Source of the DNA: Tachypleus tridentatus
Lineage: Eukaryota > Arthropoda > Merostomata > Xiphosura > Limulidae
Direction: 5' to 3'
DNA length: 64,000 nt
NCBI RefSeq assembly: GCF_004210375.1
Contig: NC_134825.1
Span: 73,337,558-73,401,557 of the forward strand
Shown one piece after another: positions 11,945 to 62,716 of this stretch. The notes under the pieces were generated by a model that worked only from the letters and a program-made list of their open reading frames with translations, searched no databases and was not told the DNA's origin. Each line of letters opens with the position of its first letter. Position 1 is the first letter of the stretch. The position numbers were made by a program, and so were the translations under genes.

Positions 11945-12253
11945 ATGACAGAATTAGATAAAAGCTTGACTTCAATGGATTGGTTGCCGAAACTAAATGT
12001 GAAGGGAACTCTAAACGGAGAGCAGATAAGCAACAAACTTGGATGTAATGATTATGAAGAAAATTATTCTCTAGGAAAGCCTATGCTAACTTTGAATTCA
12101 TCTCCCAAAAAGGGGAAACCTCCTTATAGCTATGCAACTTTAATATCATTTGCTATTAATAGTTCTCCTAAGAAAAAAATGAGATTAAGCGAGATATATT
12201 CTTGGATTTGTACAAATTTTCCATATTACGAAGATGCAGGAAATGGGTGGAAG
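11945..12253 (+). CDS. FOXJ3: FOXJ exon 1 (coding): start codon, SLTSMDW block, first half of forkhead domain
   Basis: The exon encodes residues 1-103. The start is chosen because M-T-E-L-D-K followed by [11 protein letters not shown] aligns directly with the family N-terminus; A at -3 gives an acceptable initiation context. The forkhead domain begins at about residue 57 (GKPPYSYA, helix 1), continues through helix 2 (LSEIYSWI) and stops at GWK. The donor is AAG|GTAAGC at phase 0. Splitting the forkhead domain just after G-W-K, before N-S-I-R-H-N, is consistent with the intron that follows. The reading frame continues only nine codons into the intron before a stop. Confidence 0.96.
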
Positions 12254-61200: not shown

Positions 61201-62716
61201 AAGTTTGATATGATTCCAATGCAAAATAAATGATATCTTTTGGGATTGACTTTTAAGGAAAAGACATGTTCCTGAAGACTGAACTTAAGAAACACTTTTG
61301 AAACATACAGATAAGTTGCTTTTTAATTTTTGGAAGTGCCACAAAGTGTTGAAATATAAGAAGATTAAATTTTGTCATGTTTTGACATATTAACAGCAGA
61401 GGTGATGTTGGTTGCATATATTTTAAAAAGATATGCAGTTAAGTGGTAAAATCTTAGCATTTGTTTGAGCAGAGATCAGTTTCCAATTTCTAAAAATGTC
61501 ATGAAGACATTTATATTAAATGAATCTAAATACATTACAACAGAATACTTTATAATATTCAATCATACATGTATAATGCAAGTAGCTAAATATTAGAACA
61601 TATTTCACTAAATATAATAGTACTGTCTATTGTATGTCCATGTAACTACTTCACAGGGTGCAGATGGTATGGAGGTTTATTAAGTCCAGCCAGGAAGGAG
61701 TACATAAAAATATTTAGTTTTGCAGTTTTTTTATGGACATTTTTTAAATTTTATTTCACAACTTCATTCTCTGTAGATGGATCTTCACCAAATTTGGTAT
61801 GAAGGTTCATTGAGTCCATGGGCAGATACATGCAGATTTTGAGTTTTGTGGCTTTATAGCCATTTTTTCTTTTTTACCACTACTTTGTCTTCTGTAGATG
61901 TATCCTCACTAAATTTGGTATGGAGGTTCAAAGGGTACACAGAGAGATGCTGAATAAAAGTTTGAGTTTTGTGGGTGTTTTTCACCACTACTTTGCCCCC
62001 TGTAGATGAATCTTCATCAAATTTGGCACGAAGGTTTATTGGTCCATTCTGAAGTACATACAAATTTGTGATTTCACATTCCGTGCATTGTAGTTTTTAT
62101 GGGTGTTTTTTACAATTATATCAAGGGAAACAATTTTTCATTTTTAATATAACCTTTCATTAATAATAAATTTACATTTTGTGAGTTTAGGTCATTTGAA
62201 ATTAGTCTCAACAATTAATCATTTTTCCTCCAATAGTTAAAACAAAATGTCATTATTTATATTATTTGCTGAAAATGTTGAAGCCTCAGTGCAGGTTATA
62301 ATGAATTCTGTTAAATGTTACCATCATTATTCACCAAGTTTTTTAAGTAATTACTAATATATATCTTTTTTAAAGGTTGTTTTCTTATTAACACAACTGT
62401 AGTGATAAAACGTATAAATTACATGATAAATCTGACTGACTGTTGTATATCAGTTTTTCCAATCTCTTTTCACTAAAAGTTACCTAAAACAGTTGAATCA
62501 GCAGGATTTTCTAAATATGTTCAAATGGTAAATTATATTCATAAATATTATGTTTCAGATAAGGAAAAATTAAATAAATACAAATCAAAATTTTAATAAA
62601 TAAGTAAAACTGGTTGTCCAGTCATACCTTTGGTACCATTTTCATAGCTTCATACTCTGACCGCATTTCATCCATTTCATCATGGACTTCAATTGTACCT
62701 CTGAACCAAGTCAAAG
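58136..62716 (-). CDS. SLC2A1: Class I facilitative glucose transporter (GLUT1/SLC2A1-like), 3' half in six exons; 5' part outside window
   Basis: This is a plasma-membrane hexose uniporter of the major facilitator superfamily. Exons in transcript order are 62628-62716, 61080-61178, 60421-60633, 59883-59958, 58737-58864 and 58136-58279, all with GT-AG introns and matching phases, giving about 249 codons. The segment starts in the central cytoplasmic loop (ALTWFRGT) and covers TM7-TM12. Visible hallmarks are QQLSGINA in TM7, which carries the QLS signature of glucose-selective class I members. [11 protein letters not shown] lies in the loop after TM8. ATGPGSIPWF lies in TM10 and contains the tryptophan equivalent to GLUT1 W388. 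VNWSANF lies in TM11, equivalent to N411-W412. PETK follows TM12. TM1-TM6 should lie beyond base 64000. The C-terminal tail after the last conserved block is very short. Confidence 0.95.
58737..58864 (-). CDS. SLC2A1: GLUT exon: TM10-TM11
   Basis: The acceptor is TTTACAACAG and the donor GCT|GTAAGC. After the split glycine it reads [20 protein letters not shown], then [14 protein letters not shown]. It carries the PIPWF-type tryptophan and the N-W pair known in GLUT1 for inhibitor and substrate contacts. Phase 0 at the 3' end. Confidence 0.95.
59082..59144. mobile_element. 63-bp PLE tip insertion with 14-bp target duplication, in a GLUT intron
   Basis: The insert reads TGATGATGAGAAAACCCACT, then the PLE tip through ACCAGCCGTTTTTACATATA, matching the outer end of the PLE at 21920-21989. 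Flanks are AAACTAACCATTAG (59068-59081) and AAACTGACCATTAG (59145-59158). Confidence 0.82.
59883..59958 (-). CDS. SLC2A1: GLUT exon: TM10 start
   Basis: The acceptor is GTATTTCAG and the donor CCAG|GTTAGA. The 76 nt read [17 protein letters not shown], then V-V-M-F-A-T-G-P plus one base. This aligns with EQLPWMSYLSI and the G-P-G-P start of TM10 in GLUT1. Ends in phase 1. Confidence 0.93.
60421..60633 (-). CDS. SLC2A1: GLUT exon: TM7 end to TM9
   Basis: The acceptor is AAATTTTAG and the donor AAG|GTGGGT. Seventy-one codons start [14 protein letters not shown], followed by [10 protein letters not shown], then [18 protein letters not shown]. The E-R-x-G-R-R motif is the conserved cytoplasmic loop that controls the transport conformations in sugar porters. 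Confidence 0.96.
61080..61178 (-). CDS. SLC2A1: GLUT exon: TM7 with QLS motif
   Basis: The acceptor is ATTTCTCAG and the donor GCT|GTAAGT. Thirty-three codons, phase 0 on both sides, begin V-T-L-Q-E-M-W and end [11 protein letters not shown]. The QQLSGIN segment lines the sugar site; QLS in TM7 separates GLUT1/3/4-type carriers from fructose carriers. Confidence 0.95.
61640..62100. repeat. Diverged tandem repeat of about 108-121 bp in a GLUT intron
   Basis: CTGTAGATGNATCTTCAC, then AAATTTGGTATGAAGGTTCA recurs at 61771, 61892 and 62000, with a weaker copy before 61700. Unit spacing is 121 and 108 bp. An open frame across it is a by-product. Confidence 0.85.
62628..62716 (-). CDS. SLC2A1: GLUT exon: central cytoplasmic loop
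   Basis: The acceptor is CTTACCTTTTAG and the donor AAG|GTATGA. The 89 nt start with two bases that complete an alanine codon. They read [17 protein letters not shown], aligning with ALKKLRGTADVTHDLQEM of GLUT1, the intracellular helical segment between TM6 and TM7. No exon matching the preceding segment was seen between 62717 and 64000. Confidence 0.92.

What the first reader, a model, noticed from the sequence alone, without database searches (positions are those of the whole stretch)
11945..62716. Ancient FOXJ2/3 - class I GLUT linkage
A FOXJ2/3 forkhead gene and an SLC2A1-type transporter are neighbours here, with stops about 12 kb apart. In human, FOXJ3 and SLC2A1 both map to 1p34.2, and FOXJ2 and SLC2A3/SLC2A14 both map to 12p13.31. 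Finding the same pair next to each other in an arthropod suggests the linkage predates the vertebrate duplications and was kept in both descendants. Here the pair is convergent. One possible reason for retention is a long-range regulatory element of one gene lying within the other's introns.
Basis: partly seen in the sequence, partly recalled or inferred. Interest (0 to 1): 0.75.

Follow-up and report, generated by a model that had tools for sequence, protein, structure and literature searches.

The report
Old gene neighbours: FOXJ and GLUT
A regulator gene of the FOXJ2/3 type lies beside a glucose-transporter gene in this animal, as their relatives do in vertebrates, which most likely reflects an old stretch of chromosome kept loosely together rather than a working partnership.

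Summary
A FOXJ2/3 forkhead gene (+ strand, 11945-46014) and a class I glucose transporter (- strand, 3' half at 62716-58136) are convergent; 12,121 bases separate their stop codons. The transporter's 5' half lies beyond the window.

A tree puts the transporter with GLUT1/3/4 (81/86), but as a lineage-specific co-orthologue. One paper lists SLC2A3 and FOXJ2 as conserved neighbours in jawed vertebrates.

In the window's own 2.17 Gb genome a second FOXJ2/3 copy has a close transporter relative 2.4 Mb away; a third (C6) has none that is close. YBX, recalled as lying between human FOXJ3 and SLC2A1, lies 2.8-5.8 Mb from three transporter loci. But FXR is not near, and my one control family (TBP) lies 7.7-12.4 Mb away, so the wider block is only suggestive.

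The segment was recently duplicated in inverted orientation (99%). One far copy carries the FOXJ 3' end with the transporter, so the adjacency predates that event.

No convincing conserved non-coding block was found between FOXJ paralogue loci. Passive retention of an old linkage is the best explanation; regulatory constraint is unsupported. No other invertebrate genome could be examined.

The parts
11945..12253 (+). FOXJ2/3 exon 1: start codon, N-terminal LTSMDWLP motif and first half of the forkhead domain
   Evidence: 82% identical to recalled human FOXJ3 over the 84-residue forkhead domain versus 58-60% to FOXG1, FOXC2 and FOXK2
22291..22365 (+). FOXJ2/3 exon 2: [13 protein letters not shown] part of the forkhead domain
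   Evidence: AG/GT flanks, phase 0
23846..23917 (+). FOXJ2/3 exon 3: GSYW end of the forkhead domain
   Evidence: AG/GT flanks, phase 0
43106..43285 (+). FOXJ2/3 late exon matching the conserved region after the DWY motif
   Evidence: tblastn with recalled FOXJ3, E 2e-5, 46% over 39 residues; splice flanks read by eye
45895..46014 (+). FOXJ2/3 last exon ending [10 protein letters not shown] and stop
   Evidence: resembles the C-terminal DDFDWDSIV of recalled FOXJ3; start read by eye
58136..58279 (-). GLUT last coding exon (VPETK motif) and stop codon
58737..58864 (-). GLUT exon with [14 protein letters not shown]
59883..59958 (-). GLUT exon ending in GPG
60421..60633 (-). GLUT exon with STEIF and [10 protein letters not shown]
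61080..61178 (-). GLUT exon with SQQLSGINA
62628..62716 (-). GLUT exon with FRGT; the N-terminal half continues beyond the window
43000..63000 (.). Segment repeated in inverted orientation 2.6 Mb away on the same contig (C1:76027683-76047696), carrying FOXJ 3' exons plus GLUT; only 54500-63000 and 43000-46900 were shown to match (both 99%); the stretch between them is inferred from nearly equal spacing (7,642 against 7,600 bases)
52573..63000 (.). Part of that segment present in a further copy (C1:75986595-75997012), 98-99%

Best explanation
FOXJ2/3 and the class I GLUT gene are two functionally unrelated genes that sat on one stretch of an early bilaterian chromosome. They have stayed loosely linked by descent: in vertebrates after the 2R duplications, and here after this lineage's own duplications. 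The linkage is passive, kept because rearrangement is slow, at distances from 12 kb to a few Mb. The 12-kb convergent arrangement is one local order among several. Shown: adjacency here, gene identities, a second FOXJ2/3-GLUT pair 2.4 Mb apart on C10, and the vertebrate SLC2A3-FOXJ2 linkage in print. Inferred: common descent of the linkage here and in vertebrates, and absence of selection.
For: Exon-level models. Class I placement. FOXJ2/3 copies on C1, C6 and C10; GLUT group A on C1 (three copies) and C10 (78.45 and 145.34 Mb); so FOXJ C10:142.93 and GLUT C10:145.34 are 2.4 Mb apart. YBX loci 5.8, 4.4 and 2.8 Mb from the window GLUT and the two C10 group A genes (C1:67.57, C10:149.78, C10:81.24). 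DVL at C10:149.24, 3.9 Mb from a group A GLUT, and at C6:160.67, 8.9 Mb from a FOXJ. SLC2A3 and FOXJ2 listed among conserved neighbours in gnathostomes (PMC9664204 passages). The duplicate on C1 carries FOXJ 3' end and GLUT together while FOXJ exons 1-3 were found on C1 only at the window locus, so the adjacency is older than the 1% divergence. Varying distances and orientations fit passive linkage.
Against: The C6 FOXJ copy has no close GLUT on its contig (one weak 30% row with stops); the C10:78.45 GLUT is over 60 Mb from the C10 FOXJ; a third DVL locus (C3:71.02) and further YBX loci (C8:104.5, C10:189.4-190.7) lie elsewhere. FXR, a recalled member of the human paralogon, lies on C7, C11 and C1:33.2, 40 Mb from the window. 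NECAP is on C6 and C10 but about 130 and 43 Mb from the FOXJ copies. PPCS gave no match. The one control family, TBP, lies 7.7 Mb (C10) and 12.4 Mb (C1) from group A genes, so proximity of YBX and DVL is weak evidence. Duplicated regions are not independent trials. No other invertebrate was examined.
Confidence: 0.62

Rival explanations
1. The two genes became neighbours independently in this lineage before its own duplications; the resemblance to the vertebrate linkage is coincidence.
For: This genome holds many class I-like GLUT loci, the pair was picked after the fact, one FOXJ copy lacks a close linked GLUT, the C10 pair is 2.4 Mb apart with a different order, and an arbitrary control family is also within 7.7-12.4 Mb.
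Against: Crude chance of adjacency within 50 kb is 0.0006-0.0015. YBX, recalled as lying between FOXJ3 and SLC2A1 in human, is 2.8-5.8 Mb from three group A genes.
Confidence: 0.25
2. The linkage is held by cis-regulatory constraint: a long-range element of one gene lies in or beyond the other.
For: FOXJ introns are long. In mouse, Slc2a3 and Foxj2 share a neighbourhood with a super-enhancer, and CTCF loss lets that enhancer contact and raise Foxj2 (PMC9019034 passages), which shows that they can share elements there.
Against: Between the window and 100 kb at each of two FOXJ paralogues the matches in order were exon 1 and one intron-1 stretch (20854-21575), which recurs twice in the C10 region and again at window 36040-36736, so it is a dispersed repeat. 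Order, orientation and distance vary between copies. In mouse the stronger contact appears when CTCF is lost. Rfam found nothing at gathering scores.
Confidence: 0.08
3. The adjacency is an assembly artefact or an effect of the recent inverted duplication.
For: Three copies of the GLUT segment at 98-99% on one contig, two in tandem and one inverted, could include misplaced haplotypes; one N-terminal exon has a frame change.
Against: Both the window and the C1:76.03-76.05 copy hold FOXJ 3' end and GLUT at the same spacing, so the adjacency would stand even if one copy were spurious.
Confidence: 0.05

Closest known systems
Vertebrate SLC2A3-FOXJ2 region (neighbours of TRPV5/6, PMC9664204)
   Same: A class I GLUT gene and a FOXJ2/3 gene on one conserved stretch, in a region that the paper assigns to a 2R paralogon
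   Different: Orientation and spacing differ (recalled); the other neighbours listed there (AICDA, VAMP1, GNB3, CLCN1 and so on) were not looked for here; NECAP (recalled neighbour) is on the same contigs as the C6 and C10 FOXJ copies but 43-130 Mb away
Human FOXJ3-YBX1-SLC2A1 region, 1p34.2 (SLC2A1 position from the PMC2887874 abstract in a listing; FOXJ3 and YBX1 positions recalled)
   Same: FOXJ, YBX and class I GLUT on one chromosome stretch
   Different: About 0.6 Mb with other genes between in human (recalled); here YBX is 5.8 Mb away and FOXJ-GLUT are adjacent
Conserved bilaterian macrosynteny in slowly rearranging arthropods (PMC4244043)
   Same: Genes kept on the same chromosome by descent without demonstrated function
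   Different: That paper reports genome-wide linkage and names FoxJ2 as a retained subfamily; it does not describe this pair in the passages seen

Membership tests
FOXJ2/3 forkhead subfamily | Forkhead domain closer to FOXJ2/3 than to other Fox classes | tested here: met
   82% to recalled FOXJ3 versus 58-60% to FOXG1, FOXC2, FOXK2; grouping 96/97 in a 7-row tree. FOXJ1, FOXJ2 and other classes were not included
FOXJ2/3 forkhead subfamily | N-terminal LTSMDWLP motif and C-terminal acidic DDFxWD motif (recalled) | tested here: met
   both found in the window. The N-terminal stretch recurs in the C6 copy (LTSMDWLP) and, with one change, in the C10 copy (LTSIDWLP)
FOXJ2/3 forkhead subfamily | Forkhead domain interrupted by introns (Clade II Fox genes, PMC8918179 section 6; FOXJ2/3 in Clade II recalled) | tested here: met
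   introns after GWK and after DPGK
Class I GLUT (SLC2A1-4) | Groups with GLUT1/3/4 rather than class II or other sugar porters | tested here: met
   81/86 for the class I node, class II 100/98 (13 rows, C-terminal half only; GLUT2 not included)
Class I GLUT (SLC2A1-4) | QLS motif in TM7 (recalled as a glucose-selective class I feature) | tested here: met
   SQQLSGINA at 61080-61178
Class I GLUT (SLC2A1-4) | Glucose transport activity | not testable with these tools
   needs expression and uptake assay
One-to-one orthologue of vertebrate SLC2A1 | Single co-orthologue in this genome | tested here: not met
   groups A and B join before the vertebrate genes (90/94; one B row); five A copies and about seven B loci by similarity
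Conserved bilaterian microsynteny | Same pair linked in several non-vertebrate phyla | not testable with these tools
   no invertebrate genomes besides the window's own are held; paper searches did not show one

The most novel reading that the evidence does not exclude
FOXJ2/3, class I GLUT and YBX, perhaps with DVL, form a linked block of the bilaterian ancestor that outlived separate rounds of genome duplication in vertebrates and in this lineage, held together by shared regulation.
Probability: 0.08. Interest if true: 0.6.

Novelty: new member of a known kind. Interest (0 to 1): 0.35.

Why it matters
If the linkage is ancestral, it gives a fixed marker for tracing one ancestral chromosome through independent duplications in vertebrates and in an invertebrate, and a pair in which loose, passive linkage can be compared with claimed regulatory constraint. 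By itself it is an instance of the well-known persistence of bilaterian macrosynteny.

Tried and rejected
Conserved non-coding blocks: blastn of the whole window against 100 kb of C6 and 100 kb of C10 at the FOXJ paralogues gave 644 hits, which I read as mostly repeats by their depth; I looked one by one only at the 26 low-depth rows. In order and orientation were exon 1 and one intron-1 stretch (20854-21575); the latter occurs twice in the C10 region and again in the window at 36040-36736, so I set it aside as a repeat, although Pfam names no family for the ORF beside it. The 100 kb did not reach the end of either paralogue gene, so 3' elements are untested.

Recent insertion of GLUT beside FOXJ: considered when the 99% copies were found, rejected when the FOXJ 3' end proved to be in one copy.

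Wider block: PPCS (none found; that family search is exon by exon and insensitive), NECAP (same contigs, 43-130 Mb from FOXJ), FXR (C7, C11 and C1 40 Mb away), TBP as the only control (7.7 and 12.4 Mb from group A genes, so it hardly discriminates).

Species: a repeat found five times in the window has no exact match in the viral or prokaryote collections. ARAGORN found no tRNA and Rfam nothing.

Dropped rows: (82 matches) I set aside weak or single-exon rows: C13:136.9 (75% over 32 residues), C10:149.64 (47% and 36%), C6:159.70 (30%, six stops, E 1e-6, 7.9 Mb from the C6 FOXJ), C7:125.4, C1:12.4, C8, C9 and C14 rows, and the intronless C1:78.3 and C7:183.2 genes. Only one of about seven group B loci and three of five group A copies went into the tree. 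In one search (81 matches) I counted three FOXJ2/3 loci that match from residue 1 or 2 at 64% or more; a broken C6:152.44 copy and two exon-2-like rows on C6 (148.39, 152.47) were not counted. No exon 2 was found within 100 kb of the C6 exon 1, so that copy may be incomplete. One search did not list the window itself (37 of 16,779 candidates scored), so it is incomplete. In one search the far C1 pair counted as one cluster (4 A, 7 B), and contig ends were ignored.

Full report
Observation. Both genes are where the finding says. The forkhead gene starts at 11945; its forkhead domain is spread over three exons with standard splice flanks, and Pfam scores exon 1 at 61 bits. Its forkhead domain is 82% identical to human FOXJ3 (recalled letters) and 58-60% to FOXG1, FOXC2 and FOXK2 taken from PDB alignments. 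The N-terminal LTSMDWLP and C-terminal [10 protein letters not shown] motifs resemble FOXJ3 as recalled. Introns inside the forkhead domain fit Clade II Fox genes (PMC8918179, section 6 read). FOXJ2/3 belongs to the ancestral arthropod set in that paper (passages). The last exon ends at stop 46012-46014; the middle of the gene is unresolved.

The transporter. Six minus-strand exons with standard splice flanks give 248 residues and a stop. PDB scores order GLUT1, GLUT3, GLUT4, then GLUT5, GLUT7, GLUT9. In a 13-row tree of the C-terminal half, class I including the window gene has support 81/86, class II 100/98. The gene's N-terminal half lies past the window. One exon there has a reading-frame change in a run of G, which may be an assembly error or a real lesion.

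Own genome. The window is C1:73337558-73401557 of a 2.17 Gb assembly in 205 contigs. FOXJ2/3 copies matching from residue 1 or 2 lie at C1:73.35, C6:151.77 and C10:142.93 Mb, with a broken copy at C6:152.44. Close GLUT relatives (group A) lie at C1:73.40, 75.99 and 76.03 and at C10:78.45 and 145.34; more distant ones (group B, about seven loci) lie elsewhere. Groups A and B (one B row) join each other before the vertebrate genes (90/94), so they are probably co-orthologues of GLUT1-4. The C10 FOXJ copy thus has a group A GLUT 2.4 Mb away. The C6 copy has no close one; a 30% match with six stops lies 7.9 Mb from it at C6:159.70 and was not followed up.

Chance. Under uniform placement, any of 3 FOXJ loci within 50 kb of a class I locus has expectation 0.00055 with 4 clusters and 0.0015 with 11; at least two of three within 2.41 Mb has 0.0002 and 0.0018. 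These are crude: genes are not uniform, contig ends were ignored, the pair was chosen after the fact, and duplicated regions are not independent.

Neighbours. YBX loci lie at C1:67.57, C10:149.78 and C10:81.24, that is 5.8, 4.4 and 2.8 Mb from the window GLUT and the two C10 group A genes, and also at C8:104.5 and in a cluster at C10:189.4-190.7; weaker rows on C5, C6 and C7 were left out. DVL lies at C10:149.24, C6:160.67 and C3:71.02 (rows under 60% identity left out). NECAP lies at C6:21.7 and C10:185.6. FXR is at C7:131.5, C1:33.2 and C11:71.7. PPCS gave nothing. The control TBP lies at C10:86.13 and C1:85.77, 7.7 and 12.4 Mb from group A genes, so C1 and C10 may be duplicated chromosomes in general, and closeness of a few Mb is not by itself telling. 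Of five vertebrate-neighbour families tested, two have loci within 10 Mb of a FOXJ or group A locus, two (NECAP, FXR) share a contig at 40 Mb or more, and one was not detected. Human positions of YBX1, FOXJ3, DVL2, NECAP1, PPCS and FXR are recalled.

Recent duplication. Window 54500-63000 is 99% identical to C1:75986595-75995079 and C1:76027683-76036149, both inverted relative to the window. Window 43000-46900, with the last two FOXJ exons found, is 99% identical to C1:76043791-76047696. The spacing between the two tested pieces is 7,642 bases there and 7,600 here. FOXJ exons 1-3 were found on C1 only at the window locus (all 89 candidates scored). So a truncated FOXJ 3' end and GLUT travelled together, most simply from the window locus; the adjacency is older than this event. 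The nearer copy was seen to match down to about window 52573 (an incomplete list).

Regulation. Comparing the window with 100 kb at each paralogue found, in order, exon 1 and one intron-1 stretch that proved to be a dispersed repeat. In mouse cells Foxj2 and Slc2a3 sit in the Nanog neighbourhood, and loss of CTCF lets a super-enhancer contact Foxj2 and raise it (PMC9019034, passages); NANOG's SLC2A3-AICDA setting is shared by sarcopterygians, Xenopus excepted (PMC3894937, passages). This shows that shared elements are possible, not that they hold the genes together.

Vertebrate side. SLC2A3 and FOXJ2 are among ten neighbours of TRPV5/6 conserved in most of the vertebrate genomes examined, in gnathostomes and possibly lamprey (PMC9664204, passages). 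SLC2A1 is at 1p34.2 (PMC2887874, start of abstract in a listing). FOXJ3's position there is recalled; one search found no paper holding four of its five terms. If it is right, the vertebrate map alone implies linkage before 2R.

Verdict. Observation confirmed; ancestral linkage plausible and moderately supported; regulatory retention unsupported; other invertebrates untested. No paper describing the invertebrate pair was seen in searches of a library that lacks most subscription journals.

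Noticed in passing
32146-32898: Tandem array of 18 copies of a 42-base unit, 99% alike, inside a FOXJ intron; open in all three minus frames because the unit is a multiple of three.
   Followed up: no
1956-1997, 8633-8674, 26993-27034, 63143-63184, 63601-63642: Five copies of a conserved short repeat, all on the minus strand; the two at 63 kb follow sequence that looks tRNA-like by eye (ARAGORN found no tRNA), so probably a SINE. No exact match in viral or prokaryote collections.
   Followed up: partly
49455-52066: High-copy element, about 2.6 kb, 82-91% identical in 41 rows over many contigs. 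ORFs look hAT-transposase-like by eye only; Pfam gave no significant family for three of them.
   Followed up: partly
52663-54093: LINE fragment with weak endonuclease and reverse transcriptase matches, below Pfam's cut-offs, between the two genes.
   Followed up: no
20854-21575 and 36040-36736: Dispersed repeat, 77% alike and inverted within the window, two more copies in the C10 FOXJ region.
   Followed up: partly
45658-45866: Short near-palindromic high-copy repeat (about 210 bases, hits on both strands at many places) just before the last FOXJ exon.
   Followed up: no
43000-63000: Recent inverted segmental duplication of FOXJ 3' end plus GLUT on the same contig, giving three GLUT copies at 98-99%.
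   Followed up: yes
L041 (about 2.2 kb past the window end): Reading-frame change in a G run in an N-terminal exon of the GLUT gene; assembly error or lesion.
   Followed up: partly
G000:C6:152437417-152437658: Broken FOXJ2/3 exon-1 copy with stop codons, 0.67 Mb from the intact C6 exon 1.
   Followed up: no
G000:C6:159699355-159699693: Weak GLUT-like stretch (30%, six stops) 7.9 Mb from the C6 FOXJ copy; could be a decayed relative.
   Followed up: no
L031-L040 (C10:142836001-142936000): FOXJ2/3 paralogue whose first intron is about 55 kb.
   Followed up: no
15261-15461: Two perfectly identical 99-base tandem copies in FOXJ intron 1.
   Followed up: no
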